Assembly: GCA_013151235.1 (NCBI GenBank)
Contig: JAADIO010000021.1
Coordinates: 960 to 16,593, forward strand
Length of the DNA stretch: 15,634 bases
Reading direction: 5' to 3'
Origin: Deltaproteobacteria bacterium
GTDB taxonomy: Bacteria > CG2-30-53-67
The notes under the pieces: model-generated
Seen by the model: the letters and a program-made list of their open reading frames with translations, nothing else
What the model was told of the DNA's origin: nothing
Databases searched by the model: none
Shown here: positions 790 through 14,455 of the stretch, in pieces
Numbering within the stretch: the first letter of the stretch is position 1
Layout: each line of letters opens with the position of its first letter
Made by a program: the position numbers and the translations under genes

Positions 790-1018
790 TCTCAGGAGCC
801 CGCAAGTCCCCTCGGCAGGTTGTGTGACCAAGCGTTCCGGACGGGTCGAAAAGGGAACTTATTCTTTCAGGGTATTCATACTGCAATTCCTGCGCTTTGT
901 CAAAGAGAATCTTTTCCGGATTTCTCTGCACTTCCCGAAAAAGGTCGGGGAACTCGATACGATGCTCCGCATTTTTTTGCTTGACAGATATCCTTCGCGG
1001 GTTTAAGTTATGTGCATA
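782..1018 (-). pseudogene. Protein-like reading frame without a start (possible gene remnant)
   Basis: On the minus strand a frame without stops runs from about 1018 to a TAA at 784-782 and reads, in part, EFPDLFREVQRNPEKILFDK and then QELQYEYPERISSLFDPSG. It contains no ATG, and an in-frame stop lies immediately upstream. The first part looks like genuine protein (mixed charged and hydrophobic helix pattern, NPEK turn), whereas the end reads through palindromic intergenic DNA. It vaguely resembles the N-terminal region of a transposase, but I do not recognise it with confidence. It overlaps the probable promoter of the DUF134 gene, so it may be only an accidental open frame. Confidence 0.25.
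981..1010 (+). promoter_or_regulatory. Candidate sigma-70 promoter for the DUF134-led operon
   Basis: TTGACA at 981-986 is a perfect -35 hexamer. Seventeen bases further on, TAAGTT at 1004-1009 is a weak -10 (first, second and last bases match the consensus). Transcription from here would start just before the DUF134 gene at 1041. The -35 box is convincing and the -10 box is not. Sigma-70 consensus is known; use here is inferred. Confidence 0.35.
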
Positions 1019-1025
1019 TTCACAT
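1010..1025. promoter_or_regulatory. Candidate operator: ATGTG-N6-CACAT palindrome
   Basis: ATGTG (1010-1014), a 6-bp spacer (CATATT) and CACAT (1021-1025) form a perfect 5+5 dyad. It overlaps or directly follows the candidate -10 region and lies 15 bp before the start of a gene for a small HTH protein. That placement suits a binding site for autorepression by the DUF134 protein. A dyad this short can arise by chance. Confidence 0.35.
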
Positions 1026-1040
1026 TATGAGGTTTTCCCG

Positions 1041-1346
1041 ATGTCACCGAGACCCAAGAAAATACGTCATTGCGGATGCAAGCTGAAGGGGCGCGCCTTC
1101 AAGCCGACGGGGATGCCGATGGGGGCGCTGGAAAAGATCAGGATGTACCGTGACGAGATCGAGGCGATGAAGCTCTGCGATCTCGACGGGCTGACTCAGG
1201 AGGAGGCGGGTCTGCGGATGGGGGTCTCCCGGGGGACGGTTCAGCGGATCCTGAGTTCCGCAAGACGAAAGAGCGCCGAGGCGCTTTCCGGCTGCAAGGC
1301 GATTATCCTGGACGAAGTCGTCTGCGGGAAATCCGAAGAGAAATAA
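1041..1346 (+). CDS. DUF134 (UPF0251) family HTH DNA-binding protein
   Basis: A 101-residue cytoplasmic protein. It opens with SPRPKKIRHCGCKLKGRAFKP, the typical basic, Pro/Arg-rich start of the DUF134 family. A sigma-70-region-4-like helix-turn-helix follows at about 50-76 (LTQEEAGLRMGVSRGTVQRI), with a second helix rich in Arg and Ser. Four cysteines (11, 13?, 46, 85 region and 95) could bind metal or sense redox state, but this is inference; 11 and 13 are given by the CGC-type segment near residue 12. The start at 1041 is chosen because GAGG lies 8-12 bases upstream and the family begins here; the longer frame back to 897 reads through the promoter. Family members commonly sit next to NifX/NifB-domain genes, as here, and are thought to be regulators. 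It probably controls the downstream operon. Confidence 0.88.
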   Translation: MSPRPKKIRHCGCKLKGRAFKPTGMPMGALEKIRMYRDEIEAMKLCDLDGLTQEEAGLRMGVSRGTVQRILSSARRKSAEALSGCKAIILDEVVCGKSEEK

Positions 1347-1348
1347 TC

Positions 1349-1372
1349 TGATGGCTTCGCAAGAAGTCATCA
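1349..1372 (+). repeat. Hairpin with GCAA tetraloop, resembling one end of the tolC-flanking repeats
   Basis: TGATGGCTTC (1349-1358) pairs with GAAGTCATCA (1363-1372), with one G-U pair, around a GCAA loop, starting 2 bases after the DUF134 stop codon. No T-run follows, so it is not a classical terminator, though it could stabilise the 3' end of the transcript. GATGGCTTCGCAAGAAGTCA matches 16 of 20 positions of the left end of the large repeat at 6724, so it may be a solo end of that repeat family. Confidence 0.5.
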
Positions 1373-1416
1373 ACAGGCCGAGGGCGGGTAAGCCCCGGTC
1401 TGGGGTGAGGGTGGAA

Positions 1417-1497
1417 CCATTTGAACTTGGTTCAAATGGCGGGGGAGGAGTCTCTTCCCCCGCCTCGCAAAAAGGCGATCTGTGACGTTTTGCGAGG
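1417..1497 (+). promoter_or_regulatory. Chain of three abutting strong hairpins in the nifX-like leader
   Basis: Three inverted repeats lie end to end with 2-base overlaps. The first is CCATTTGAAC/GTTCAAATGG (1417-1426 with 1430-1439, loop TTG). The second is a GC-rich stem (1438-1450 with 1452-1464, arms GGCGGGGGA and TCCCCCGCC as the perfect outer part). The third is CCTCGCAAAA/TTTTGCGAGG (1463-1472 with 1488-1497). They occupy the 182-bp gap before the NifX-like gene. They could be an attenuator, an RNA-processing element between the regulator and the rest of the operon, or inserted repeat DNA. I recognise no known riboswitch. Confidence 0.55.
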
Positions 1498-1528
1498 TCA
1501 TCGATTAACAGAAAAAGGAGAAAAAACC

Positions 1529-1924
1529 ATGAAAATCTGTTTTCCGGTCAAAGAAAACAACGGATTGCAAAGCCGTATCTACGGACATTTCGGGTCCGCA
1601 CCGATGTTCGTCGTCGTAGAAGAGGGGACCGGCGGCTCGTCGGAACCGGAGGTTGAGATCGTACAGAACGGGAACATGAATCATGTTCACGGTCAGTGTA
1701 GTCCGGTACGCGCTCTCGGAGGCACAAGCGTCGACTGTATCGTTGTAGGCGGGATCGGAGGCGGGGCGCTCAACAAGCTTTCGTCCATGGGAATCCGGGT
1801 CTTTCGCGCACAGGGCGGAACCATCGGGAAGAACCTGGATCTGCTCCGGGAGGATCAACTCAAGCCGATTGATCCCTCCATGACCTGCACGGGGCATGAC
1901 CATGGCGGCGGGTGCGCTCACTGA
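1529..1924 (+). CDS. NifX/NifB-domain (dinitrogenase Fe-Mo cofactor biosynthesis-like) protein with His/Cys tail
   Basis: A 131-residue soluble protein of the family that carries Fe-Mo or other iron-sulfur metallocluster intermediates (NifX, NafY, C-terminal NifB domain and many stand-alone homologues of unknown job). It shows the family's conserved segments: MKICFPV at the start, GHFGSAPMF at 19-27, CSPVRAL at 57-63 and the glycine loop VVGGIGGGALNKL at 72-84. It ends in a short metal-binding-like tail with C120, H123, H125, C129 and H131. The start at 1529 has AGGAG 8 bases upstream; the frame continues upstream to 1421 but only through the hairpin leader. No nif structural genes are in the window, so a nitrogenase role is not supported. 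Its pairing with a DUF134 gene is common. Its substrate is unknown. Confidence 0.88.
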   Translation: MKICFPVKENNGLQSRIYGHFGSAPMFVVVEEGTGGSSEPEVEIVQNGNMNHVHGQCSPVRALGGTSVDCIVVGGIGGGALNKLSSMGIRVFRAQGGTIGKNLDLLREDQLKPIDPSMTCTGHDHGGGCAH

Positions 1925-1954
1925 AATCCATTCATCGAGAGGGGAAACATCATT

Positions 1955-2353
1955 ATGAAAGAAGAAATGGTTCTGGAAAGGACGAGTCCCGTCGGCATCG
2001 ACGAGACCCTGGAGAAACTCCGGTCCGCCGTGGAAAAGGCGAACTGGGTGGTGTCGGATGTAAAGCCGCTCCACAAATCGGTGAAGAAAAACGGCGGGGA
2101 CGATCTCCGGCCGGTCCATATCATGCAGGTCTGCAACGCGCAACATGCGTCCGAGCTTCTGCGGAACGACGAGACCCGGTTTGCCTCGGCCTACATGCCC
2201 TGCACGATTTCCGTCTATGAAAGAGAGGACGGTTCCGTCGGCGTGGCCACGGTGAACATGGCCCCGGTGGGAGAGGCGTTGGGCGGAGTCTTCCGCGAGG
2301 TGATGAGTGTGCCGGTCGCGGCACAGATGCAGGGCTTCCTGGATGCCCTGTAA
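1955..2353 (+). CDS. DUF302 family protein
   Basis: A 132-residue cytoplasmic protein with no signal peptide or membrane segment. The DUF302 pattern is visible: an N-terminal alpha/beta part with paired-helix ETLEKLRSAVEKANWVV (about 17-33), then HIMQVCNAQHASELL (55-69), and then ASAYMPCTISVYEREDGSV (77-95), the usual MPC-x-VYE-DG motif, giving conserved Cys60 and Cys83. DUF302 proteins are often found beside sulfur-oxidation genes, heme or copper proteins and SQR-like flavoproteins, but their biochemical role is not settled. It starts 30 bp after the NifX-like gene with AGAGGGG 10 bases upstream, so it is co-transcribed. An internal ATG four codons later (1967) is a possible alternative start. 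Confidence 0.85.
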   Translation: MKEEMVLERTSPVGIDETLEKLRSAVEKANWVVSDVKPLHKSVKKNGGDDLRPVHIMQVCNAQHASELLRNDETRFASAYMPCTISVYEREDGSVGVATVNMAPVGEALGGVFREVMSVPVAAQMQGFLDAL

Positions 2354-2397
2354 GGGGCGGGGGAATCCGGAAACCGATGAGAAGAAAGGAGCGGAGG

Positions 2398-3570
2398 ATG
2401 ACGAAAGGCCGTGTTCTCGTACTGGGCGGCGGTTTCGGCGGGGTTGAAGGAGCGATCCATCTGAGCCGGGCGGGATTCGACGTAACCCTCGTCTCGGAAC
2501 GGGACTTTGCTTATCTTTACCCCGTTTCCATCTGGATCCCGACGGGGGAGATCGATTTCGACGATGCCTGTCTCGATCTGCTCCGGATCTCCTCCCGCTA
2601 TCGGTTCAAACTCCTCCGGGGGAAGGTGACCGGAATCGATCCGGAAGGGTGCCGCGTCGAGGTGGACGGCGACCGGACCGACTCCTTCGATTTCATGCTG
2701 ATCGCCCTGGGCGGGGCGAAGATGAAGCCCGCGGGGGTGGAACATACCCTCTCCATCTGCGGCCGCCCCAAAGATTCCCTTGAGATCAAAAAGCGGGTCG
2801 AGGCCCTCATTGCCGGGGGAGGCGGGAGGATTGCCGTCGGTTTCGGCGGCAACCCCAAAGATCCTTCGGCGGTCCGGGGCGGACCGGCCTTTGAGCAGGT
2901 TTTCAACCTCCATCACTTTTTTGTCAAAAAGGGGTGGCGGAACTCCTTCTCCCTGACGATGTTCGCTCCCATGGAGAAACCGGGGATCCGGTTAGGGGAA
3001 GGCGCTGTGGAGAAGGTCTATGATTTCCTCAACCGGATGAAAATCGACCGGCGTTTCGGCGTCAAGATCACGCGCTTCGAGGAAGGGGGGGTCGTCTTTG
3101 CCGATGATTCGCGTCTTGAAAGCGACCTCACCCTCTTCATCCCAGCGGGGACGGGACTCCCCCTCTTCCGGGAGGCAGGGCTCCCCCTCAATGATGCCGG
3201 GTTTATCCGGATCGATCCCTCCTGCCGGGTCGAAGGCACGAAGAGGATCTTTGCGGTCGGGGATTCCGCCGCCATAGACGGCCCGAAATGGCGGGCCAAA
3301 CAGGGACATCTCGCCGAGGCCATGGCCCGGGTTGCCGCCGCCAATATCCGGGCGGCCGCCGCCGGACGGGACCCGGAGGAAAACTATATCGACCACGTCA
3401 GCATCCTCTGCGTCATGGACTATGGAAACGGCGCCGCCGTCGTTCACCGGAGTACGAAGCGATCCTTCATGGTTCCCCTGCCGATTGTCGGACACCTGCT
3501 GAAAAAAAGCTGGGGCCTCTACTGGAAGCTGACCAAGACCGGCAGGATCATGCGCCTGCCCGGCTTTTAG
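2398..3570 (+). CDS. FAD-dependent oxidoreductase, sulfide:quinone oxidoreductase-like
   Basis: A 390-residue flavoprotein of the two-dinucleotide-binding-domain family that includes SQR, flavocytochrome c sulfide dehydrogenase and NDH-2. Residues 6-20 are the FAD Rossmann motif (VLVLGGGFGGVEGAI). The second FAD contact is RIFAVGDSAAIDGP (283-296). The C-terminus (359-390) is hydrophobic-basic and probably attaches to the inner face of the membrane, as in SQR. Cys121 and Cys338 (ILCVMDYGNGAAVV) fall near the first and third redox cysteines of SQRs. The segment where the second should lie (GGNPKDPSAVRGGPAFE, 150-166) has no Cys, so a classical polysulfide-forming site looks incomplete. I therefore call it SQR-like, electron donor uncertain. 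The start at 2398 is preferred because AAGGA lies 7 bases before it; an ATG at 2377 is in frame but lacks a good site. Confidence 0.82.
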   Translation: MTKGRVLVLGGGFGGVEGAIHLSRAGFDVTLVSERDFAYLYPVSIWIPTGEIDFDDACLDLLRISSRYRFKLLRGKVTGIDPEGCRVEVDGDRTDSFDFMLIALGGAKMKPAGVEHTLSICGRPKDSLEIKKRVEALIAGGGGRIAVGFGGNPKDPSAVRGGPAFEQVFNLHHFFVKKGWRNSFSLTMFAPMEKPGIRLGEGAVEKVYDFLNRMKIDRRFGVKITRFEEGGVVFADDSRLESDLTLFIPAGTGLPLFREAGLPLNDAGFIRIDPSCRVEGTKRIFAVGDSAAIDGPKWRAKQGHLAEAMARVAAANIRAAAAGRDPEENYIDHVSILCVMDYGNGAAVVHRSTKRSFMVPLPIVGHLLKKSWGLYWKLTKTGRIMRLPGF

Positions 3571-3638
3571 GATCCTGAAACCGGGGATAAAGATCCGCCT
3601 TCCCTCCTTTTGGTTTTCTGCAATACAGGAATCCCTCT

Positions 3639-4433
3639 ATGGAACAGACCCTTCTTCTTTCCCTGATCTTCTTCATCATCTCCACCCTCTTCTCGATGAT
3701 CGGGCTGGGCGGAGGCATCCTCTATGTGCCGATCCTCCTCTTCACGGGCTTCACCTTCAAGCAGGCGCCGGCGATCAGTCTCATCCTGATCACGGCGACC
3801 TCGCTTTCGGCCCTCTTCACCTTTCACCGCAACCGGAGGGTCGACTGGAAACTGGCCCTGGTCATCGATCCTCCGACGGATGTGATGGCATTCGTTGGGG
3901 GATACTTCAGCGCCCTCGTGCCGGAGCCGGTCTTGCGTGTCTGCCTCGCCGTGACCCTGATGATCGCGGGGACCCTGATGTTCCGGAACCGTCCCAAGAG
4001 CGGGGGAATACACCCGGCGGAAAAGAGCCGCTGGTCCTGGCACCGGGAGTTCAACGGGGTTTCCTACCGGGTCAACCTTCCCCTGGTCTTGACTGCAACG
4101 GCGTTGATCGGTATCCTGTCGGGGATGTTGGGGATCACCGGGGGAATTATCAAACTGCCGATCATGGTCCTGCTCTGCGGCGTACCGATGGATATCGCCG
4201 TCGCCACATCCACGGTGATGGTCACCGTCACCGCCCTGTCGGGCCTTGCCGGACACGCGGTGAACGGTTATATTGACTGGTCGACAGGGCTTCTCCTGGC
4301 GATCACGGCGGTCTCGGGTGGGCTTCTTGGAAGCCGGATCTCCCTTTCCATGAACAGGGTCCGCCTGAAACAGATCTTCGGGGGGGTTGTCTGGCTGATC
4401 GCAATTCGGATCATGATTCAGCAGTTTCTTTAA
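3639..4433 (+). CDS. Sulfite exporter TauE/SafE family (DUF81) permease
   Basis: A 264-residue polytopic inner-membrane protein with about eight hydrophobic segments. The family's two internal repeats are clear: FSMIGLGGGILYVPILL (about 18-34) and GMLGITGGIIKLPIMVLL (about 162-179), each followed by a second helix ending in a short polar loop. A cytoplasmic or periplasmic loop of about 30 residues (115-145, rich in Arg, Lys, Trp) separates the halves. Family members move sulfite, sulfoacetate, thiosulfate or other organic or inorganic sulfur anions. The position after an SQR-like gene supports sulfur-anion transport, but the substrate cannot be read from sequence. AGGA lies 8 bases before the ATG. 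The gap to the upstream gene is 68 bp, and the stop codon overlaps the ribosome binding site of the next gene. Confidence 0.87.
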   Translation: MEQTLLLSLIFFIISTLFSMIGLGGGILYVPILLFTGFTFKQAPAISLILITATSLSALFTFHRNRRVDWKLALVIDPPTDVMAFVGGYFSALVPEPVLRVCLAVTLMIAGTLMFRNRPKSGGIHPAEKSRWSWHREFNGVSYRVNLPLVLTATALIGILSGMLGITGGIIKLPIMVLLCGVPMDIAVATSTVMVTVTALSGLAGHAVNGYIDWSTGLLLAITAVSGGLLGSRISLSMNRVRLKQIFGGVVWLIAIRIMIQQFL

Positions 4434-4448
4434 AGGAGAACGAATCTA

Positions 4449-5051
4449 ATGATGAAACGGGAATTCCCGGACTGGGAAAAACTTTATCAAGAGGAAGAAG
4501 TGGAATCGATGCCGTGGTTTCGGCCTACGCTGGATGACGACATCGCAGCCGCGCTGGAGGAGTGGAAGATCAAGCCCGGAGCGGTACTCGATAACGGAAC
4601 CGGGCCGGGCACACAGGCAATCGCCCTGGCCGAACGCGGCTTCCAGGTGACCGCTACCGACCTCTCCGAGACCGCGATCGTCAAGGCCCGCTCCCGGGCG
4701 GACAAGGCGGGAGCGAAGATCGACTTTCGGCAGGACGATATTTTAAAGAGCCGCCTGGACGGCGGCTTTGATCTGATCTGTGATCGCGGCTGTTTTCACG
4801 TCGTCTCCCCGGAGGAGAGGCCGGTCTATGTCGAAACGGTCCACCGCCTTCTCCGCGAAGAAGGGATCCTCTTGCTCAAGTGTTTCAGCCGCCTCGAGAC
4901 CCGGGAGGAAGGACCCTATCGGTTCTCCCCGGAGGAGATCCGTACACTTTTTGAGGGGCGGTTCCGGATCCTCGAGATCCGGGAGTCCCTCTTCCGCGGC
5001 AACCGGCGGCCCTTCCCGAAGGCGCTCTTCTCCGTCATGCGCAGGGCCTGA
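4449..5051 (+). CDS. Class I SAM-dependent methyltransferase, TPMT/TehB-like
   Basis: A 200-residue soluble protein with a complete Rossmann-like methyltransferase fold. Motif I is VLDNGTGPGT (46-55), the acidic end of beta-2 is ATDLS (69-73), the adenine-side acidic segment is RQDDI (94-98), and motif IV is FDLICDRGCFHVV (107-119). The DRGCFH element and the WY/PWF N-terminus (DWEKLYQEEEVESMPWF) recall thiopurine-methyltransferase and TehB-type enzymes that methylate thiols, selenium or tellurium oxyanions. Closest substrate is unknown. It is the last gene of the operon, 15 bp after the permease with AAGGAG upstream. Next to SQR-like and TauE-like genes, methylation of sulfide or a related chalcogen is an attractive inference. 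ATGATG gives two adjacent possible starts (4449 or 4452). Confidence 0.82.
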   Translation: MMKREFPDWEKLYQEEEVESMPWFRPTLDDDIAAALEEWKIKPGAVLDNGTGPGTQAIALAERGFQVTATDLSETAIVKARSRADKAGAKIDFRQDDILKSRLDGGFDLICDRGCFHVVSPEERPVYVETVHRLLREEGILLLKCFSRLETREEGPYRFSPEEIRTLFEGRFRILEIRESLFRGNRRPFPKALFSVMRRA

Positions 5052-5098: not shown

Positions 5099-5230
5099 GA
5101 TGAAGTCTTAAAAAGTCCGTTCGACCCTTCGACACGCTCAGGGCGAACGGTGTAAGTCATTGATATTCCGTTCGTGGTGAGCCTGTCGAACCATGAACGG
5201 AATCCGAAAACGACTTTTTACGAGACCATC
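5099..5230 (+). repeat. Palindromic intergenic repeat, copy A (upstream of the TolC gene)
   Basis: The element is bounded by TAAAAAGTC (5109-5117) and its inverse GACTTTTTA (5212-5220). Inside are two hairpins. One has arms CCGTTCG (5117-5123) and CGAACGG (5144-5150). The other has arms CCGTTCGTGGT (5168-5178) and ACCATGAACGG (5190-5200), with one G-U pair. Bases 5137-5224 match 6783-6871 of copy B with three substitutions and one inserted base. The core (GTGAGC-TGTCGAACCATGAACGG type) is, from memory, a dispersed repeat in many environmental bacterial genomes. It has no coding capacity and is too short for a transposase; a MITE or REP/BIME-like element is likely. It ends 38 bp before the TolC start. 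Confidence 0.8.
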
Positions 5231-5268
5231 TTGATTGGAGGTCGATTGATGCGGAAGGGAGACGGAAG

Positions 5269-6657
5269 ATGATGGTTGCTTTTTCATACAGAGAGGCCGA
5301 CGATAAATCGTGTCGCTCGTACCGATGGACCACGGCGTTCTCCCTGTCCTTGCTCCTGCTTTTTCTGCCGGGCACGCTCTTCGCAGACCCGCCGCAGACC
5401 CTCACTCTAACCGAGGGAATCCGGACCACCCTGAAGAATCATCCGGCGCTGAAAGCCGCCGGGTATGCCCTCAATGCGGCCGATGAGGCGGTCCGGGAGG
5501 CCCGGGGCGGATTCCTCCCCCGGATTGATCTTTCGGAAACATTCAACCGGACGACCGGTCCCGGCGAAGTCTTCTGGACCGAGCTCTCCCAGGAGCGTTT
5601 CTCCCTCTCCGACTTCGCAGCGACCAACCCGAACGATCCCGACGCGATCTCCAACTACAACACGCAGGTGACCCTGGTGCAGCCCCTCTACACCGGGGGA
5701 AAATTGAGCGCCGGTTACCAGATCTCCAAACTGCAACGCGGTGCGGTGGAAAAGAAACGTGAACAGACCCGGCAACAGGTCATCCGGGAATTCACGACCG
5801 CCTACTACAGGGCGCTGCTCGCCGGACGCTACGTGAAGGTCGCCGAAAAAGCGAAGGCAGCGGTCGAGGCCCATGTGAAAATGGCCCGGGATCTTCTGGA
5901 GCAGGGAATGGTCCTTCGATCCGACCTGCTCCGGGCACAGGTCCGCCTGTCGGAGGTCGAATCCCGCCTGATTACCGCGAAGAATCAACGGAAGCTGGCC
6001 CTGGCAAACCTGAACCGGATCATGGGGGTTGACCAGGGACGGGATTACCAACTGGTCGATCAGGAGAAGACAACCCCGTCCCCGCCGGAGGAGGAACTGC
6101 CGCAACTCATCCGGGAGGCGGAGGCACACCGCCCTGACCTCGCGGGTTTGAAACGGATGAAAGAGGCCGCAGAGAAGGGGGTCACCGTCGCCCGTTCGGC
6201 CTTCCTGCCGCATATTAATCTCGTGGCACGCTACGACCGGAACGATCGGGACTTCCTCGGCAGCGACGGCGAATACTGGTCCGTCATGGCCGTGGCCGGG
6301 ATCAACCTTTTCGAGGGGCTCTCCGGCCGGGCCAGGGTGAGACGTGCAAGGGCCGATGCGGCCCGGATGTCGAGCCTTGTGACCCGTGCCGAGGAGGGGA
6401 TCGAGATGGAGGTCCGAAAGGCCTATCTCAATATGAAGGAGGCCGGGGCGCGTTTGGAGGTCGCCCGCAGGACGGTCGCAATGTCGGAGGCGGGAATGAA
6501 GATCGTCGAGGACCGCTACCGGAACGGTATGGGACGAATCACCGAACTCCTCGATACGGAAGCCTCCCTGACCCGGGCAAGGACCGACGAGGCCCGTGCG
6601 CGTTACGATCTCAATCTTTCCCGGACCCATCTCGACTTCGCCCTGGGAAGACTGTAA
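5269..6657 (+). CDS. TolC-family outer-membrane efflux channel
   Basis: A 462-residue precursor. Residues about 20-39 form a signal peptide (RW-TT, then a leucine-rich core, ending TLFA before DPP). The mature part shows the duplicated outer-membrane-efflux-protein pattern: LTLTEGIRTTLKNHPALKAA begins the first repeat, with a beta-barrel region NTQVTLVQPLYTGGKLSAGY (131-150) and long heptad-like helices (150-260). The second repeat begins at LIREAEAHRPDLAGL (about 275-290), followed by a barrel stretch with AGINLFEGLSGRARVRRA and helices to the end (YRNGMGRITELLDTEASL). As a trimer it would form the outer-membrane exit duct for the tripartite pumps encoded next door. GGAAGGGAGACGGAAG supplies a ribosome binding site; ATGATG leaves the start ambiguous by one codon. 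The gene is flanked by two like-oriented palindromic repeats. Confidence 0.92.
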   Translation: MMVAFSYREADDKSCRSYRWTTAFSLSLLLLFLPGTLFADPPQTLTLTEGIRTTLKNHPALKAAGYALNAADEAVREARGGFLPRIDLSETFNRTTGPGEVFWTELSQERFSLSDFAATNPNDPDAISNYNTQVTLVQPLYTGGKLSAGYQISKLQRGAVEKKREQTRQQVIREFTTAYYRALLAGRYVKVAEKAKAAVEAHVKMARDLLEQGMVLRSDLLRAQVRLSEVESRLITAKNQRKLALANLNRIMGVDQGRDYQLVDQEKTTPSPPEEELPQLIREAEAHRPDLAGLKRMKEAAEKGVTVARSAFLPHINLVARYDRNDRDFLGSDGEYWSVMAVAGINLFEGLSGRARVRRARADAARMSSLVTRAEEGIEMEVRKAYLNMKEAGARLEVARRTVAMSEAGMKIVEDRYRNGMGRITELLDTEASLTRARTDEARARYDLNLSRTHLDFALGRL

Positions 6658-6722
6658 CGGAACACCGGTCGGCCGAGCGGGGGCATAAAAGCAGATGGAT
6701 TTTTTACAAAGCCGTCAAAGGA

Positions 6723-6877
6723 GATGGTGTCGTAAAAAGTCACGAAGCCCTTCGACCCTTCGGCCGACTCAGGACAGGCGTACTCAGGGCGAACGGTGTA
6801 AGTTATTGATATTCCGTTCGTGGTGAGCTTGTCGAACCATGAACGGAACCCGGAAAACGACTTTTTACGAGTTCATC
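6723..6877 (+). repeat. Palindromic intergenic repeat, copy B (between TolC and adaptor genes)
   Basis: This is the same element and orientation as copy A. Its outer ends are GATGGTGTCGTAAAAAGTC (6723/4-6741) and GACTTTTTACGAGTTCATC (6859-6877), inverted relative to each other. The second internal hairpin is intact (arms 6814-6824 and 6836-6846). The first is altered: its left arm reads CCCTTCG and about 23 extra bases (CGGCCGACTCAGGACAGGCG region) sit before CTCAGGGCGAACGG, looking like a partial internal duplication. It ends 14 bp before the adaptor start, leaving just enough room for the ribosome binding site. The remaining sequence of the gap (6658-6722) shows nothing clear. Confidence 0.8.
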
Positions 6878-6891
6878 AAAGGAAATCGCCC

Positions 6892-7968
6892 ATGAAAAAA
6901 ACAAGGTTCATCTTGATCCCGACGCTTGTGATCATTCTTTCTTTTTTCGGCTGCCGGGAGAAGGCCGCGCAGGAAACCGGGACGGTACATCCGGAGATGA
7001 TCCGGGGGGTGAAGACGGCAGTGGCCCGGCTCGGCAAAATCGACATCACTTACACCGCTCCCGGCACGGTACGGGCCGCCATACAGTCCACCCTGACCAG
7101 CAAAGTCATGGGGAACGTGACCCGGATCCGGGTCCGGGAGGGAGACCGGGTGAAGAAGGGAGAGATCCTTCTTCGGATCGAATCGAAAGAGATCAGTGCA
7201 AGGATCGCCCAGGCAAAAGGGGCGCTTGAAGCGGCGAAAGCCGCCCTCCGTAATGCAGAGGCAAATTACGGGAGGACCTCCAGGCTTTACTCCAGGGGGT
7301 CGGCCACCCGCTTTGAACTCGACGGGGCGACCCTGCAGCGTGACGCTGCCCGCGGCCGGCTTAAACAGGCGGCCGGGGCGGTTCGGGAGGCACTCGCCAT
7401 GAAGGGATACGCCCTGATCCGGGCCCCCGCGAACGGACGGATCACCCGCAGGCATGTCGAGGTGGGAGACCAGGCGGCACCGGGGAGGCCGCTGCTCGAT
7501 TTCATCGATTCGTCCCACCTCCAGTTCGAGACCTTTGTCCCCGAATCGAAACTTGCCGCCCTCAGGATCGGACTGAAAGTGGCGGTTATCGTCTCCGCCC
7601 TCGGAAACCACAAAATCACGGGCCGGATTGCGGAGATGGAGCCCGCGTCGGACCCGGTCTCCCATTCATCGAAGATCAAGCTGGATCTGAAAGGCGCCCG
7701 GAAGGCGCTCCCCGGCATGTACGGAAAGGCCTTCTTCCCGGTGGGAAGCAGACAGGTGGTTCTGGCACCGAAAGAGGCCGTCTTCACGCGTGGCCAGCTC
7801 ACGGCGGTTTATGTCCTGGACAAAAAGAAGGTACTCCACTTCCGGCTGGTCCGGACGGGCAAGGAGTATAACGGCCGGGTGGAGATCCTGTCGGGGCTTG
7901 CAGGCGGGGAACGGGTGGCCGTCTCCGAGATTGCCCGCATCGAAGACGGCATGGAGATCACACAATGA
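6892..7968 (+). CDS. RND efflux periplasmic adaptor (membrane fusion protein), lipoprotein
   Basis: A 358-residue protein of the HlyD/AcrA-type adaptor family that bridges an RND permease and a TolC channel. Residues 1-20 are a lipoprotein signal ending FFGC, with Cys21 the likely lipid-modified residue (the -3 Phe is not ideal). The first lipoyl half is GNVTRIRVREGDRVKKGEIL (74-93) and the second NGRITRRHVEVGDQAAPGRP (181-200), with a coiled-coil hairpin between them (about 100-170, rich in Ala, Lys, Arg). Beta-barrel and membrane-proximal domains follow. The start at 6892 is supported by AAAGGA 8 bases upstream and by the signal peptide; the in-frame ATG at 6820 would translate the repeat and is rejected. 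Its TGA overlaps the next ATG (ATGA), so translation is coupled to the permease. Confidence 0.92.
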   Translation: MKKTRFILIPTLVIILSFFGCREKAAQETGTVHPEMIRGVKTAVARLGKIDITYTAPGTVRAAIQSTLTSKVMGNVTRIRVREGDRVKKGEILLRIESKEISARIAQAKGALEAAKAALRNAEANYGRTSRLYSRGSATRFELDGATLQRDAARGRLKQAAGAVREALAMKGYALIRAPANGRITRRHVEVGDQAAPGRPLLDFIDSSHLQFETFVPESKLAALRIGLKVAVIVSALGNHKITGRIAEMEPASDPVSHSSKIKLDLKGARKALPGMYGKAFFPVGSRQVVLAPKEAVFTRGQLTAVYVLDKKKVLHFRLVRTGKEYNGRVEILSGLAGGERVAVSEIARIEDGMEITQ

Positions 7969-10900
7969 CGAAACGTGGAGGGGCCGGACGCCTTGCCGCT
8001 GCCTTCATCGAATCCAAACTGACGCCGCTGATCATCCTGGCGGCCCTCCTTCTGGGGGGCATGGCCGTGATGATGACCCCGCGTGAAGAGGAACCCCAGA
8101 TCATCGTCCCGATGATGGATGTCCTCGTCCGTTTTCCGGGGGCCGGCCCGTCCGAGGTCGAATCCCGGATCACCTCCCCGATGGAACGGAAGCTCTGGGA
8201 GATCCCCGGGGTGAAATACCTTTACTCCATGTCCCGGCCGGGTCTCTCCATCGTCACGGTCCGCTTCCGCGTCGGCGAGAACGTGGAAGACTCCCTGGTC
8301 AAGCTCTACGACAAACTCGCATCAAATGCCGACCTGATCCCACCGGGGGCCTCCCCACCGCTGGTCAAGCCCAAGTCGATCAACGATGTGCCGATCCTCG
8401 CGCTGACCCTCTGGGGGAAAAATTATCACGGCTATGAACTCCGGAGGATCGCAGACGAAACGGCCGTGGAAATCAAAAAGCTTGACGATATCTCCGAGGT
8501 GGAGATCCTCGGCGGCCGAAAAAGAACCGCGCGGGTCCTCTTCTCCGCGGAGCGGCTCTCCGCCTACGGTCTCTCCGCCCTCGGCGTGGCGCAACGTCTG
8601 GGGGAGGTAAACCGCAACCTGCAGGCCGGGAGTTTCAGCCGGCGGGATCGCTCCGTGAAGGTGGAAATCGGAAGCTTCCTCCGGGATGCCGGGGACCTGG
8701 GCGATGTCGTCGTGGGCGTATGGAACCATCGCCCCGTTTATCTTCGGGACGTGGCCGAAATCAAAGACGGTCCCAATGCACCCGACGACTATCTCTTCTT
8801 CGGCACAGGTCCGGCGGGAAGGGCGAAGGGGATTGCCGGAGCCTTTGCCGGGAAAAGATTCCCGGCCGTCACCATTGACATCGCCAAGAGGAAGGGGACC
8901 AACGCCGTCTCGATCGCCCGGGCGGTCAAGGCGCGGGTGGCTTCACTCCGGGGAAGGGTCATCCCGGACGGAGTCCATGTCACCTGGACCCGGAACTACG
9001 GCGCCACAGCCCAGGAGAAATCGAACGAGTTGATGCAACATCTCCTCCTTGCCACGGTTTCGGTAACGATCCTGATCGGTCTCTTTCTCGGGTTCTACGA
9101 AGCCCTGGTGGTGGCCGTAGCCGTCCCGGTGACCCTGGCGATGACCCTCTTCATCAGCATGCTTTTAGGCTACACCTTAAACCGGGTCACCCTCTTCGCC
9201 CTGATCTTCGCGATCGGGATCCTGGTGGATGACGCGATCGTGGTGGTGGAAAACATCCACCGCCACTACAAGCTGAAGAAGGAAGATCCGCTGCAGGCGT
9301 CGATCACGGCGACCGACGAGGTCGGGAACCCCACGATCCTTGCAACACTGACGGTTATCGCGGCACTGCTCCCCATGGTCTTCATCTCCGGCCTCATGGG
9401 TCCCTACATGGAACCGATCCCGATCAACTCCTCGGTCGCCATGGTCACCTCCCTGCTGATCGCCTTCATCGTCACGCCCTGGCTGACCTATCACATGACC
9501 GGCAAACGAAAAAACCTCAATGCAGAAAAGACCTTTGAACTCAAGGAGACCCGGCTTTACAAGCTCTATCACGCCATTCTCTGTCCCTTGGTCCGGAATC
9601 CGTGGAGACGGTGGTTCTTCCTGACCGGGGTCACCCTGCTCCTCTTTGCTTCCATGTTTCTGGTTTACGCCCACAGGGTCCGGGTGAAGATGCTCCCGTT
9701 CGACAATAAGAGCGAATTCCAGGTGATCATCGACATGCCGGAGGGGACCACCCTCGAGACCACCTCCGCCCTCTGCATGGAGATCGGCGATTATCTCGCC
9801 ACAGTGCCCGAGGTCACCGACTACGAAATCTATACCGGGACCCATGCCCCGATCAATTTCAACGGCCTGGTTCGCCACTATTTTCTTCGTCGGGGTCCCA
9901 ACGTGGCCGGGATCCAGGTGAACCTGCTCAACAAACATGATCGGAAGGCCCAGTCCCACGATATTGCCGTCCGGGTCCGTCCGAAGATCCAGCGGATCGC
10001 GAAACGGTACAATGCCCGGGTCAAGATCGCAGAGGTCCCGCCGGGGCCGCCGGTCCTCTCCTCGCTCGTAGCGGAGGTCTACGGTCCCGATCCCGCGGCA
10101 CAACGCAGGCTTGGCAGGGAGATCCGGAACATCTTCGATTCGACACCGAACGTGGTGGACGTGGACTGGTACGAGGAGGATCCGCAACCGGAGGACCGGT
10201 TCGTCATCGACCGCGAAAAGGCCTCCCTTCTCGGGGTCTCTCCCAACGCCGTCACAAAGAGCCTGCGTCTCGCCCTGGCCGGGATGGACGTCGGGCTCCT
10301 TCATCTCCCCAGGGAGCGGGAAGCGGTCCCCATACGGCTCCGGTTCGACCGGAAGGAGCGATCCTCGGTTGAAGACCTGACCGCCGTCAAGGTCATGAAC
10401 CGCCGGGGGAAGCTGATTCCGCTGTCCGAGCTGGTGCAGGTGCGGCGGGGATTCACGGAACCGACCATATTTCACAAGAACCAGAAACGTGTCGTCTATG
10501 TCACCGGCGATATGGCGGGAAGCGAGGAGAGCCCCGTTTACGGCATTCTCGATATGCGGCACAAGGTTGAGGCGCTTGCAACGCCCGACGGAATCCCGAT
10601 TGCAGAACACTATGCGGCGGAACCTTTGACCTCGGATCACTATTCCGTGAAGTGGGACGGGGAGTGGCAGATCACCTACGAGGTCTTCCGGGACATGGGA
10701 ATCGCCTTCGCCGCGGTCCTGGTTCTGATCTACATCCTGATCGTCGGCTGGTTTCGCTCCTTCGTCGTCCCCCTCATCATCATGGCGCCGATCCCCCTGA
10801 CCCTGATCGGGATCCTGCCGGGACACTGGATCACCGGCTCCTTCTTCACCGCAACCTCCATGATCGGTTTCATCGCACTGGCCGGCATCATCGTCCGGAA

Positions 10901-11183
10901 CTCAATCCTGCTCGTTGATTTCATCCAGATGAGAAAAGAAGAGGGAGCCAGCCTGACCGACGCAGTCCTCGAAGCCGGCGCCGTCCGCTTCCGTCCCATC
11001 CTCCTGACCGCCCTCGCCCTGATCGTCGGCGCCTTGGTCATCCTCCTCGATCCCATCTTCCAGGGGCTGGCCATCTCCCTGATCTTCGGGATCTTTGTCT
11101 CGACGGTCTTGACCCTGATCGTCATCCCGCTTCTCTATTATATGGTCATGAAGAACAAAGACGATGAGGGATGCAACCTCTGA
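7965..11183 (+). CDS. RND efflux permease (AcrB/HAE-like)
   Basis: A 1072-residue inner-membrane proton antiporter, the usual length for the family. TM1 lies at about 19-37 and a large periplasmic loop follows. TM4 carries the proton-relay pair D422-D423 in FAIGILVDDAIVVVENI. TM7 lies near 550-568, followed by the second periplasmic loop (LPFDNKSEFQVIIDMPEGTT). The end holds TM8-12, including AGIIVRNSILLVDF and AVRFRPILLTALALI. In AcrB the TM10 lysine (K940) sits where this protein has Arg978; the DD pair and the RPILLT segment of TM11 are retained. The heavy-metal subgroup signature is not evident, so a hydrophobic or drug-like substrate is more likely, but the substrate is not readable. It overlaps the adaptor gene by 4 bp and probably works with the TolC homologue upstream. 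Confidence 0.93.
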   Translation: MTKRGGAGRLAAAFIESKLTPLIILAALLLGGMAVMMTPREEEPQIIVPMMDVLVRFPGAGPSEVESRITSPMERKLWEIPGVKYLYSMSRPGLSIVTVRFRVGENVEDSLVKLYDKLASNADLIPPGASPPLVKPKSINDVPILALTLWGKNYHGYELRRIADETAVEIKKLDDISEVEILGGRKRTARVLFSAERLSAYGLSALGVAQRLGEVNRNLQAGSFSRRDRSVKVEIGSFLRDAGDLGDVVVGVWNHRPVYLRDVAEIKDGPNAPDDYLFFGTGPAGRAKGIAGAFAGKRFPAVTIDIAKRKGTNAVSIARAVKARVASLRGRVIPDGVHVTWTRNYGATAQEKSNELMQHLLLATVSVTILIGLFLGFYEALVVAVAVPVTLAMTLFISMLLGYTLNRVTLFALIFAIGILVDDAIVVVENIHRHYKLKKEDPLQASITATDEVGNPTILATLTVIAALLPMVFISGLMGPYMEPIPINSSVAMVTSLLIAFIVTPWLTYHMTGKRKNLNAEKTFELKETRLYKLYHAILCPLVRNPWRRWFFLTGVTLLLFASMFLVYAHRVRVKMLPFDNKSEFQVIIDMPEGTTLETTSALCMEIGDYLATVPEVTDYEIYTGTHAPINFNGLVRHYFLRRGPNVAGIQVNLLNKHDRKAQSHDIAVRVRPKIQRIAKRYNARVKIAEVPPGPPVLSSLVAEVYGPDPAAQRRLGREIRNIFDSTPNVVDVDWYEEDPQPEDRFVIDREKASLLGVSPNAVTKSLRLALAGMDVGLLHLPREREAVPIRLRFDRKERSSVEDLTAVKVMNRRGKLIPLSELVQVRRGFTEPTIFHKNQKRVVYVTGDMAGSEESPVYGILDMRHKVEALATPDGIPIAEHYAAEPLTSDHYSVKWDGEWQITYEVFRDMGIAFAAVLVLIYILIVGWFRSFVVPLIIMAPIPLTLIGILPGHWITGSFFTATSMIGFIALAGIIVRNSILLVDFIQMRKEEGASLTDAVLEAGAVRFRPILLTALALIVGALVILLDPIFQGLAISLIFGIFVSTVLTLIVIPLLYYMVMKNKDDEGCNL

Positions 11184-11231: not shown

Positions 11232-14200
11232 TCAGAGTTCCGCGCCGGAGGCAACGGACGCAGCGGTCTGACGTTTTGCAATCCAGTCTTTTCCCCGCTG
11301 ACGAAGGCCATCCACCAGACTATAGAAGATCGGCACATAGATGAGGGTCAGGAAGGTCGCCACAAAGAGTCCCCCGATGGCGACGACCGCGAGCGGGGAG
11401 AGCCTCTCGAGGCCGAGCGCACGCTCGGCGGCGATCGGGAGCATACCGACGATAGTTCCGGTGGCGGTCATGAGGATCGGCCGGGTCCGGACCCGAACGG
11501 CCTGTTCGATGGCGTCCCGGGTCTCCGCACCTTCGGCCCGGGCTTTCTCGATGAAGTCGATCAGCAGGATCGAATTGTTCACGACAACCCCGGCCAGAAG
11601 GATCATTCCCATGTTCGCCGGCATGCAGGCGTGCCGCCCGGTGACGAGAAGCCCCCAGACCCCGCCGATCATGGCAAGCGGGATGGCGGTCATGATGATG
11701 ACCGGGGTCGTCCAGGAGCGGAAGGTCGGCACCAGTGTAAAGAAGAGCAGAATAACCGCAAGGATGAGGGCACGTTTCAGCCGGACCCCGGCTTCGGTCA
11801 TGTTCTTGATCTCCCCTTCATGGCTGATACTGTATCCCGGCGGGAGGGGAAGGCCGGAAAGGACTTTGACGACCCGTTCCTGAAGGTGTGAGATGGAGGT
11901 GGTTCCCCGGTAACCATAGATATCGACGGTCGGCTCGAGATCCTGACGGGTGAACCGGGTCCGGGTCCATCTCTTCTTCACGGTTGCGAGTTCGGAAAGG
12001 GGCACCGGTCCCAGCGGGGTGGCGATCTGGACGGCCTTGAGGGCGGAAAGGCTGTTTCTTGCCCCCTCGGGATAACGAACACGTATCAGGTAGCCGTCTT
12101 CCCCCGGGACCCGCAGCACCGAAGCGGGCCCGCCTTTGAGGGCGTCCGTGAGCTGGCGGCTGATTTCCACGGGGCCCACGCCGTAGCGGCTCGATTTTTC
12201 CACATCGATGGTGAGAAGGAGCTGCCGCTTGTCTCGGGTCCAGGAACGTGTGACCGTGGTGAGTCCCCGGACCTTGCGGAGCCGTGCCGCCGCCTGATCG
12301 GCCAGGGAGTCCAGAACTCGGGGATCCGGGCCGGAGATCATTACATCGACCGGGGCGCTGATCGAGGAAAGCGGCGTAGCCCCGAAATCGTAGACATCCA
12401 GCGACTTGAGTCCCGGGATCCCCGCCGCCGCTTTCCGGATCTCCCCCTCCAGCTGCCAGATGGTTTTCTTCCTGTGAAAGCGGTCCACGAAGTGAACGGT
12501 TATCATCCCCTGCTGCGGGGTTCGTCCGGTACCGAAACTGATGACCCCCGCCTCGGAGCCGACCGTCGTGGAGATCTTCTCCAGCCCCGGCATCTTCTTC
12601 AGGATCGCCTCGATCTTCTTCGTCGCCGACTCGGTCGCGGCGAGGGAGGCATCCGGTTCGGTTTCGAATGCGATTTTCATGATCCCCGTGTCCATGGGGG
12701 GCATGAGATCTCGTCCGGCCACAGGCATCTGCTTCATGCTGACCACGAAGAGTGCAATGACGGGTAAGATGAAGAGGGGCTTGTGCCGCAGGGCCGTGTG
12801 GATCAAACCGGCAAAAAAATCCCGGATCGGATCCACCACGAACCGTCCGAAGAGGGCCGTGAGCCGTTCCAGCCGGGTCTTCTCGGAAGAGGACCGCACC
12901 AGATAAGGGGCCAGCAGAGGAATGACCGTAACGGACACGATATAGCTGGAAAGAAGAGCAAGGGCCAGCACCACCGTGAACTGTCTCAGGATCCTCTGGA
13001 CATAGCCGCCGCTGAACATGATCGGGACCAGGACGATCACCGTGGTAAAGGTCCCGGCCCAGTCGGCCAGGAGGATCTCGTTGAGGCCGTCCACCACCGC
13101 CCGGTAGATCGGTTTTCCCAACTGGCGAAAATGCCGCTCGATATTTTCGATCACCACGATGGCATCATCAAGGAGGAGACCCACTGCCACGATCACCGCG
13201 GTCAGCGTAACGATGTTCAGTTCGTAGCCGAAGAGATACATGGCCGCAAAGGTCAGAAAATAGGTAAAGGGGATGGAGATGGCGGCAAGGATCGAGATCC
13301 GGGTGTTGGCGAGAATCAGGAAGATCACCGCCAGGGTCATGAGCACGGCGTCCCGCAGGGCATCGGCCATATTCCCCACGCTGGTCCGGATGATGCCCCG
13401 CTGCGTATCGGCCACCTCCATGGAGAGTTCCGGGTATTTGGCCCGGATCAAAGGCAGCGCCCGCTCTACCGCGTCGATCGTGGTCGTAACGTGACCATGC
13501 TCCGGCCGCATGATGTTCATCCCGATCGCAGCCCTTCCGTTCCCCCGGTAGAGGGATTGCCGTTCCCGGAAGGCGGTCCGGACCTTCGCCACGTCCCGGA
13601 GGTGGATCTCCCCCCCGACCTCATGCCCGACCACAATCTCCTCCAGCCCGGCCTTTCGGAGACGTTCCCCCTCGGTCTTGACCAGGAACTGGCTCCCCTT
13701 CCGGAGGATCAGTCCATCAGGGATATTCACGTTCTGGGCCCGGATGGACAGGAGCACCTCTTCGAGGGAGAGGCCATGGGCATGAAGTTTCCTCGGATCG
13801 ATCTCGACCTCCATCTCCGGGAAGTAACCGCCGAAGATTTCAACGTCGGCCACATCCGGAATCCGGAGAAAATCTTCACGGATCTCATTGTCAGCCAGTT
13901 GACGAACCTTTTCCAGATCCAGATGGCTCCCCGGACGAGGGCTTAGGGCCAGGGTGAAGACCGGCGTGGTGGCGTCACTCACCCGGAAGATCTCCGGAGG
14001 GAGGATATCCTGCGGAAGCTTGGAAGCAATCCGCTGCAGAACATTCGCCACATCCGTGGCAGCGGCATCCAACCCCTTTGCATACTCGAATTCCACGCTC
14101 ACCGCAGCCATCTCATCCCGGCTGACGGAACGGACCTTACGAACCAGGTCCACCGTGGCCAGTTCCTTCTCCACGGTACGGGTCACCTTGTCTTCCACAT

Positions 14201-14402
14201 CTTCGGCCGAGGCCCCCGGTTCCGGGATGATCACCGAGATCACCGGGTAGTTCGCATCCGGGAAGAGGTTCAGCGGCATCGACTTGAAACCGATAAATCC
14301 CAGGGCCGCGGCCAGCAAGATAACGGAGGTGATCAGATGAGGCCGTTTGAGATAGGACTCGATAAAGGATTTCCTGGATTCGGTATCTTGCGGGGTTGTC
14401 AT
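11232..14402 (-). CDS. RND efflux permease (HAE-like), second system
   Basis: A 1056-residue inner-membrane RND permease, complete. TM1 is at about 23-40 (LITSVILLAAALGFIGF) and is followed by SMPLNLFPDANYPVISV, the classical start of the first periplasmic loop. TM4 contains D412-D413 in VAVGLLLDDAIVVIENI. The second periplasmic loop starts after AGRDLMPPMDTGIMKI, and the C-terminal half ends with TM10 (GVVVNNSILLIDF, 938-950) and TM11 (VRTRPILMTATGTI). In TM10 the position of the AcrB lysine is Asn942 here, as in many RND subfamilies. It differs clearly from the other permease of the window, so this is not a recent duplication. AAGG lies about 8 bases before the ATG. It is 53 bp downstream of its adaptor gene and probably co-transcribed. 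Substrate unknown. Confidence 0.93.
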   Translation of the reverse strand: MTTPQDTESRKSFIESYLKRPHLITSVILLAAALGFIGFKSMPLNLFPDANYPVISVIIPEPGASAEDVEDKVTRTVEKELATVDLVRKVRSVSRDEMAAVSVEFEYAKGLDAAATDVANVLQRIASKLPQDILPPEIFRVSDATTPVFTLALSPRPGSHLDLEKVRQLADNEIREDFLRIPDVADVEIFGGYFPEMEVEIDPRKLHAHGLSLEEVLLSIRAQNVNIPDGLILRKGSQFLVKTEGERLRKAGLEEIVVGHEVGGEIHLRDVAKVRTAFRERQSLYRGNGRAAIGMNIMRPEHGHVTTTIDAVERALPLIRAKYPELSMEVADTQRGIIRTSVGNMADALRDAVLMTLAVIFLILANTRISILAAISIPFTYFLTFAAMYLFGYELNIVTLTAVIVAVGLLLDDAIVVIENIERHFRQLGKPIYRAVVDGLNEILLADWAGTFTTVIVLVPIMFSGGYVQRILRQFTVVLALALLSSYIVSVTVIPLLAPYLVRSSSEKTRLERLTALFGRFVVDPIRDFFAGLIHTALRHKPLFILPVIALFVVSMKQMPVAGRDLMPPMDTGIMKIAFETEPDASLAATESATKKIEAILKKMPGLEKISTTVGSEAGVISFGTGRTPQQGMITVHFVDRFHRKKTIWQLEGEIRKAAAGIPGLKSLDVYDFGATPLSSISAPVDVMISGPDPRVLDSLADQAAARLRKVRGLTTVTRSWTRDKRQLLLTIDVEKSSRYGVGPVEISRQLTDALKGGPASVLRVPGEDGYLIRVRYPEGARNSLSALKAVQIATPLGPVPLSELATVKKRWTRTRFTRQDLEPTVDIYGYRGTTSISHLQERVVKVLSGLPLPPGYSISHEGEIKNMTEAGVRLKRALILAVILLFFTLVPTFRSWTTPVIIMTAIPLAMIGGVWGLLVTGRHACMPANMGMILLAGVVVNNSILLIDFIEKARAEGAETRDAIEQAVRVRTRPILMTATGTIVGMLPIAAERALGLERLSPLAVVAIGGLFVATFLTLIYVPIFYSLVDGLRQRGKDWIAKRQTAASVASGAEL

Positions 14403-14455
14403 GATTTTACCTTATGGATGTATGGGTTGATGGTTTCCGCCAGGGGCTTCGGAGG

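What the first reader, a model, noticed from the sequence alone, without database searches (positions are those of the whole stretch)
1041..5051. Six-gene operon combining a NifX-like carrier, DUF302, an SQR-like flavoprotein, TauE-type permease and methyltransferase
Short gaps (30, 44, 68 and 15 bp after the leader) and one orientation imply one transcript under a DUF134 regulator. The known families point to reduced sulfur or related chalcogens, but the combination with a His/Cys-tailed NifX-domain protein and DUF302 is not a pathway I can name. It could detoxify sulfide, selenide or telluride by oxidation, export and methylation. This is my best candidate for an undescribed system.
Basis: partly seen in the sequence, partly recalled or inferred. 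Interest (0 to 1): 0.65.

Follow-up and report, generated by a model that had tools for sequence, protein, structure and literature searches.

The report
DUF134-controlled type VI sulfide-oxidase operon
Six neighbouring genes in a sulfur-metabolising bacterium, built around an enzyme that strips electrons from toxic sulfide, look like a sulfide and metal-sulfide protection kit; the most useful find is the likely DNA switch used by its previously unexplained regulator family (DUF134).

Summary
The six genes are real, at the stated coordinates, on one strand. [quoted passage not shown] PMC9666304). The full six-gene set was found nowhere else. Subsets recur in other phyla: DUF302 with SQR-VI, NifX-like with SQR-VI, DUF134 with NifX-like. 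Two Nautiliales loci join DUF134 and DUF302 to another anion exporter, one also with SQR-VI, the other with two NifX-like genes. A CATATG-centred palindrome overlaps or abuts the core promoter of 13 of 17 DUF134 genes, window included, against none of 3,000 control fragments; I read DUF134 as an autorepressor. The DUF134-NifX gap is a MITE-like repeat, not a leader. The genome carries two dsrAB loci and no nifH above cut-off, so the NifX-like protein is not for nitrogenase. Best reading: a sulfide and metal-sulfide stress operon. Sulfide oxidation is well supported; metal handling, export and methylation are inferred.

The parts
984..1030 (+). Likely promoter of the operon: TTGACA - 17 bp - TAAGTT, with the palindrome ATGTGCATATTCACAT (1010-1025) directly after it
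   Evidence: Sequence; equivalent palindromes at 13 of 17 DUF134 genes, 0 of 3000 control fragments; one near match in the window against 0.07 expected by chance
1041..1346 (+). DUF134 (UPF0251) helix-turn-helix protein, proposed autorepressor
   Evidence: Pfam PF02001 E=8e-17, 62 bits vs cut-off 27; operator conservation
1349..1503 (.). MITE-like palindromic repeat between DUF134 and NifX
   Evidence: 83% copy in own genome; about 40 copies at 86-93% in sister species G001; z-score of folding -8.5; absent between DUF134 and NifX in relative G004
1529..1924 (+). NifX-like Nitro_FeMo-Co domain protein with C-terminal metal-binding-type tail CTGHDHGGGCAH
   Evidence: Pfam PF02579 E=1e-16; solved relatives 1t3v, 1o13, 1eo1, 1rdu; similar tails on other DUF134-partnered NifX proteins
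1955..2353 (+). DUF302 protein, cytoplasmic form, Cys60 and Cys84
   Evidence: Pfam PF03625 E=8e-15; relative of 1q9u with both cysteines aligned
2398..3570 (+). Sulfide:quinone oxidoreductase with the features of type VI (SqrF)
   Evidence: Pfam Pyr_redox_2; C121, R160, C338 invariant in 79 family members; AlphaFold pLDDT 93.4 with a single C-terminal helix 364-380; Foldseek ranks 1-11 are SQRs
3639..4433 (+). TauE/SafE-family permease, proposed exporter of oxidised sulfur anions
   Evidence: Pfam PF01925 E=1e-52
4449..5051 (+). Class I SAM methyltransferase of the TehB/TPMT/thiol-methyltransferase group
   Evidence: Pfam Methyltransf_25 and TPMT; 58% identical to a Calothrix plasmid protein annotated thiopurine S-methyltransferase; thiol methyltransferases among PDB relatives

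Best explanation
The operon protects a sulfur-metabolising anaerobe against high sulfide and the metal-sulfide stress that comes with it. DUF134 binds a palindrome over its own promoter and keeps the operon off until a signal arrives (operator shown by comparison; binding, repression and signal inferred). The type VI SQR then oxidises sulfide to sulfane sulfur and passes the electrons to quinone, with the flavin tethered at Cys121 and Cys338 carrying the growing sulfur chain (inferred from residue conservation and the TrSqrF literature). The NifX-like protein, through its domain and His/Cys tail, binds a metal or metal-sulfur cluster and may also supply the signal to DUF134 (inferred). DUF302 handles persulfide or thiol redox on the sulfane sulfur (inferred). 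TauE exports the oxidised sulfur anion, and the methyltransferase caps residual sulfide or thiols as volatile methylated products (both inferred).
For: SQR fold and type VI features (PMC9666304). Type VI SQRs work at high sulfide (PMC4584964, PMC9666304). SQR-VI neighbourhoods in other phyla carry sulfur genes: DUF302-glutaredoxin fusion, TauE and a metallo-beta-lactamase/rhodanese protein in Chlorohelix; Sulf_transp, DUF302 and NifX with MinD ATPases in Desulfobacterales; an ICMT/PEMT methyltransferase plus a TehB-like one in Pseudanabaena. DUF302 occurs in 14 of 18 SQR-VI genomes against 20 of 90 domain-wide genomes, Fisher p=1e-5 (related genomes, so not fully independent). Operator at 13 of 17 DUF134 genes. 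L095: DUF134 divergent from SLAC1-DUF302-SQR with operator-like repeats in the shared 151-bp region. Two dsrAB loci, no nifH above cut-off. The genome's second DUF302 gene sits with Sulf_transp, thioredoxin-like and TusA genes.
Against: The complete six-gene set was seen only here. TauE lies within 6 kb of SQR-VI in 4 of 82 loci, DUF302 in 4, a methyltransferase of this kind in 2. No expression or biochemical data. SQR-VI is absent from the close relatives examined. NifX-like proteins near SQR-VI in Campylobacterota lack the His/Cys tail and have no DUF134 beside them. Direct alignment with TrSqrF or CT1087 was not possible.
Confidence: 0.62

Rival explanations
1. The operon is primarily a metal (or metal-sulfur cluster) homeostasis unit: DUF134 plus the His/Cys-tailed NifX protein sense and buffer a metal such as Fe, Cu, Ni or thiomolybdate, and SQR/TauE were captured to lower sulfide so that the metal stays available.
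For: DUF134 and NifX-like are neighbours in 8 of 15 other DUF134 loci, one of them a fusion; a NifX domain is fused to a cation efflux transporter beside another DUF134 gene; His/Cys tails recur.
Against: In those 15 short loci no DUF302, TauE or methyltransferase was found, so the metal module alone does not explain the window; most window genes are sulfur-associated.
Confidence: 0.2
2. Selenide/tellurite detoxification by oxidation, export and methylation.
For: The methyltransferase has weak similarity to TehB and TPMT; the exporter in Nautiliales is SLAC1, the family that includes TehA (family, TehA link from general knowledge).
Against: No tellurite or selenium resistance gene apart from these distant similarities; curated TehB and TPMT cut-offs are missed by a wide margin; recurring partners are sulfur genes.
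Confidence: 0.07
3. Chance assembly: a mobile, low-conservation region next to a candidate defence gene and repeats, in which unrelated genes sit in one orientation.
For: MITE-like elements at three places; low-GC HEC-04-like ATPase upstream; SQR-VI missing from relatives; no second copy of the six-gene set.
Against: Gaps of 15-68 bp across five genes; the same family pairs recur in at least three phyla; DUF134 operator at the head of the operon.
Confidence: 0.1

Closest known systems
Type VI sulfide:quinone oxidoreductase (SqrF; TrSqrF of Thiocapsa roseopersicina, CT1087 of Chlorobaculum tepidum)
   Same: SQR fold, Cys121 and Cys332 equivalents, no middle cysteine, apolar residues around the C-terminal cysteine, single C-terminal helix
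   Different: Not aligned directly with TrSqrF or CT1087; sits in an operon with DUF134, NifX-like, DUF302, TauE and a methyltransferase
Synechocystis PCC 6803 plasmid sqr operon with a DUF302 gene (described in PMC5061849)
   Same: SQR beside a DUF302 protein, sulfide oxidation
   Different: Type I SQR with an ArsR regulator and a chromate-type transporter; no DUF134 or NifX
BigR-type sulfide operons (PMC5823870)
   Same: Regulator plus sulfide-oxidising enzyme; a TauE-type permease in such operons is from general knowledge
   Different: BigR regulator and a sulfur transferase/dioxygenase (Blh) instead of DUF134 and SQR-VI
DUF134-MinD-NifX clusters of anaerobes (orange-protein-like / Mrp-type)
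   Same: DUF134 regulator, NifX-like carrier, seen here in full in Nautiliales L226
   Different: Window lacks the MinD ATPases and adds SQR-VI, TauE and a methyltransferase
H2S/methanethiol S-methyltransferases (MddA, MddH, MddM1/2; PMC12904073)
   Same: SAM-dependent methyltransferase in a sulfide-stress setting
   Different: Homology to Mdd enzymes not tested; substrate unknown

Membership tests
Type VI SQR | SQR fold (two-dinucleotide-binding-domain flavoprotein) | tested here: met
   Foldseek ranks 1-11 all SQRs, TM 0.85-0.89 by query length; phmmer to 3hyv and 3h8i
Type VI SQR | Cys121 and Cys332 present, middle Cys156/160 absent | tested here: met
   C121 and C338 in 79/79, R160 in 79/79 at the middle position; three-cysteine SQRs occur in the same genomes; residue roles of TrSqrF from PMC9666304, absence of the middle cysteine in type VI from general knowledge
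Type VI SQR | Only one C-terminal helix | tested here: met
   Model shows helix 364-380 and no second C-terminal helix
Type VI SQR | Apolar residues either side of the C-terminal Cys and aromatic quinone-site residues | tested here: met
   L337/V339 beside C338; W372 and Y375 invariant at the spacing of F366/W369 (PMC9666304)
Type VI SQR | Groups with TrSqrF/CT1087 in a tree | not testable with these tools
   Reference sequences not found in the collections used; the family is abundant in Campylobacterota, reported to carry type VI (PMC4584964)
Type VI SQR | Sulfide-dependent quinone reduction, covalent FAD | not testable with these tools
   Needs protein
Nitrogenase-associated NifX | Nitrogenase genes in the genome | tested here: not met
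   Best nifH-model match 49 bits, cut-off 394
TehB / TPMT | Score above curated NCBIfam cut-off | tested here: not met
   TehB 31-42 bits vs 218-303; TPMT 23-27 vs 213-223
TauE/SafE | Pfam gathering score and full-length match | tested here: met
   179 bits vs 32.6, residues 9-257 of 264
DUF134 | Pfam gathering score | tested here: met
   62 bits vs 27
DUF134 autoregulator (proposed here) | Palindromic operator at own promoter | tested here: met
   Window site 1010-1025; 13 of 17 genes

The most novel reading that the evidence does not exclude
DUF134 proteins are repressors that recognise TTATGnnCATATGnnCATAA and work with a partner NifX-like protein carrying a His/Cys tail as a sensor of metal-sulfur clusters; this switch controls sulfide oxidation by SQR-VI in the window and, in Nautiliaceae, a SLAC1-DUF302-SQR operon.
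Probability: 0.3. Interest if true: 0.72.

Novelty: new variant of a known kind. Interest (0 to 1): 0.5.

Why it matters
DUF134 and DUF302 are widespread families without assigned function. A conserved operator makes DUF134 testable at once, and the recurring links (DUF134 with NifX, DUF302 with SQR-VI, NifX with SQR-VI) tie metal-sulfur carriers to sulfide oxidation, a connection for which I found no description in the papers searched.

Tried and rejected
Rfam scan of window and leader: nothing above gathering. The structured leader as a riboswitch: rejected, it is a multi-copy repeat. NifX for nitrogenase: rejected, no nifH above cut-off. Close relatives for synteny of the whole operon: SQR-VI absent. 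A scan for the operator near all SQR-VI loci gave only scattered single-mismatch hits, so the operator marks DUF134 genes, not SQR-VI genes as such. A genome-wide search for the operator in the own genome returned six other one-mismatch matches; only the C34 one was fetched and it gave no relevant neighbour. The local HMM counts used seeds taken partly from the same loci; key cases were re-tested with Pfam.

Full report
What is there. Six ORFs lie on the + strand between 1041 and 5051. Pfam assigns DUF134, Nitro_FeMo-Co, DUF302, Pyr_redox_2, TauE and a class I methyltransferase, all above gathering scores. The window is almost the whole of a 16.6-kb contig (C21) of a 2.62-Mb genome. GC falls from about 60% to 40% in the first kilobase, where a minus-strand ATPase fragment resembles the HEC-04 candidate defence protein.

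The gap after DUF134. The 182 bp between DUF134 and the NifX-like gene fold far better than shuffles (z -8.5). They are a dispersed repeat: one more copy in this genome at 83% and about 40 in the sister species. In family-level relative G004 the same two genes are 2 bp apart, with the promoter TTGACA-17-TATATT and a perfect palindrome TTGTGCATATGCACAA in front of DUF134. The element was therefore most likely inserted into a pre-existing DUF134-NifX pair (inference).

The flavoprotein. A family search in 84,980 genomes gave 464 related stretches; the best 80 are 49-61% identical, from Desulfobacterales, Campylobacterota, Bacteroidales and a few other groups. In the alignment of 79 sequences C121, R160 and C338 never vary. 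Against Aquifex SQR (3hyv) C121 aligns with the first SQR cysteine, C338 with the last, and R160 with the middle one. Other SQR-like proteins in the same genomes do carry the middle cysteine (L180, L183). AlphaFold gives pLDDT 93.4 with a single C-terminal helix, and Foldseek lists eleven SQR structures first. PMC9666304 describes type VI SQR as having only one C-terminal helix, FAD attached through Cys121, and Cys332 flanked by Val331 and Ile333, with Phe366 and Trp369 at the quinone site; here L337 and V339 flank C338, and W372 and Y375 are invariant at the same spacing. I conclude type VI SQR with about 85% confidence; a direct tree was not possible. Type VI enzymes are associated with high sulfide (PMC4584964, PMC9666304), and most sequenced Epsilonproteobacteria (Campylobacterota) carry one (PMC4584964), which matches the distribution seen.

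Neighbourhoods of SQR-VI. DUF6858 lies within 6 kb in 23 of 82 loci, NifX-like in 8 by HMM plus L052 by Pfam, TauE in 4, DUF302 in 4. Key cases: L038 (Desulfobacterales) Sulf_transp, DUF302, porin-like, DUF6858, SQR-VI, an unassigned ORF, MinD, MinD, NifX-like. L095 (Nautiliaceae) DUF134 divergent from SLAC1-DUF302-SQR-VI, with two CATATG sites and a third similar repeat in the 151-bp region between them. L034 (Chlorohelix plasmid) DUF302-glutaredoxin fusion, CMD, SQR-VI, then TauE and a metallo-beta-lactamase/rhodanese protein on the other strand. L035 (Pseudanabaena plasmid) SQR-VI followed by an ICMT/PEMT-family and a TehB-like methyltransferase. L226 (Nautiliales, same genome as L042) DUF134, Gly-rich ORF, MinD, MinD, NifX-like, SLAC1, DUF302, NifX-like in a row, with two CATATG sites at the head. 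DUF302 is present in 14 of 18 SQR-VI genomes and 20 of 90 domain-wide genomes. DUF302 next to SQR or sox genes is already on record (PMC5061849, PMC5037610).

DUF134 and its operator. Of 15 DUF134 loci other than the window's, 8 have a NifX-like gene within about 1.5 kb; L204 is a DUF134-NifX fusion ending in CAHHHHDDDHECQH, and five of the partnered proteins carry Cys/His tails like the window's CTGHDHGGGCAH. Upstream of 13 of 17 DUF134 genes (15 loci, window, L095) a palindrome of the form ATGnnCATATGnnCAT scores at least 14; none of 3,000 100-bp control fragments from the same loci does. It starts 31-54 bp before the start codon in twelve of these (82 bp in L095, where nearer copies score lower), overlapping or next to the core promoter, which is where a repressor acts (inference). 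In the window the site is 1010-1025. A search for DUF134 or UPF0251 in 5.39 million papers gave 23 papers; none of the titles or listed abstract openings concerns DNA binding, and the two opened only list the name. Regulon databases were not searched.

Physiology. The genome has two dsrAB loci, one with DsrMK-like and DsrE-like genes nearby, and no nifH above cut-off. A second DUF302 gene sits with Sulf_transp, a thioredoxin-like gene and TusA. The cell thus likely produces or meets sulfide (inference).

Other parts. TauE and the methyltransferase have no assigned substrate. The methyltransferase is 58% identical to a Calothrix plasmid protein whose neighbours are not sulfur genes, so its role is the weakest point. 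The proposal of H2S or thiol methylation rests on context and on thiol-methyltransferase relatives in the PDB.

Conclusion. Shown: gene content, SQR-VI features, recurring pairs, operator conservation, MITE-like insertion, lack of nitrogenase. Inferred: sulfide protection as the role, repression by DUF134, cluster or metal binding by NifX, sulfane or thiol chemistry by DUF302, export, methylation. The six-gene set as such was found only here.

Noticed in passing
window 1-~660, minus strand (continues in L135): Low-GC ATPase-TOPRIM-like gene split by an assembly gap (NN), best PADLOC match HEC-04, a candidate anti-phage protein.
   Followed up: partly
window 5099-5231 and 6723-6879: A second repeat element with inverted ends (GATG..GTC.TAAAAAGTC / GACTTTTTACGAG..CATC) flanks the TolC-type gene on both sides.
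   Followed up: partly
window 5269-11183 (+) and 11232-15565 (-): Two convergent RND-type efflux systems; both permeases score below all curated subfamily cut-offs, so substrate unknown.
   Followed up: partly
G000:C19 and G000:C16 (L133, L134): Two separate dsrAB loci in one 2.6-Mb genome.
   Followed up: partly
L132 4607-9399: Second DUF302 gene in a Sulf_transp - DUF302 - thioredoxin-like - OMP - HlyD - TusA cluster behind a two-component system.
   Followed up: partly
L204 1432-2169: DUF134-NifX fusion protein with a His-rich tail.
   Followed up: yes
L201 601-1812: Cation efflux transporter with a NifX domain at its end, divergent from a DUF134 gene.
   Followed up: partly
L038-L116 (23 of 82 loci): DUF6858, a family of unknown function, is the most frequent recurring neighbour of SQR-VI.
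   Followed up: partly
L034 7726-8346: DUF302 fused to glutaredoxin, suggesting thiol chemistry for DUF302.
   Followed up: yes
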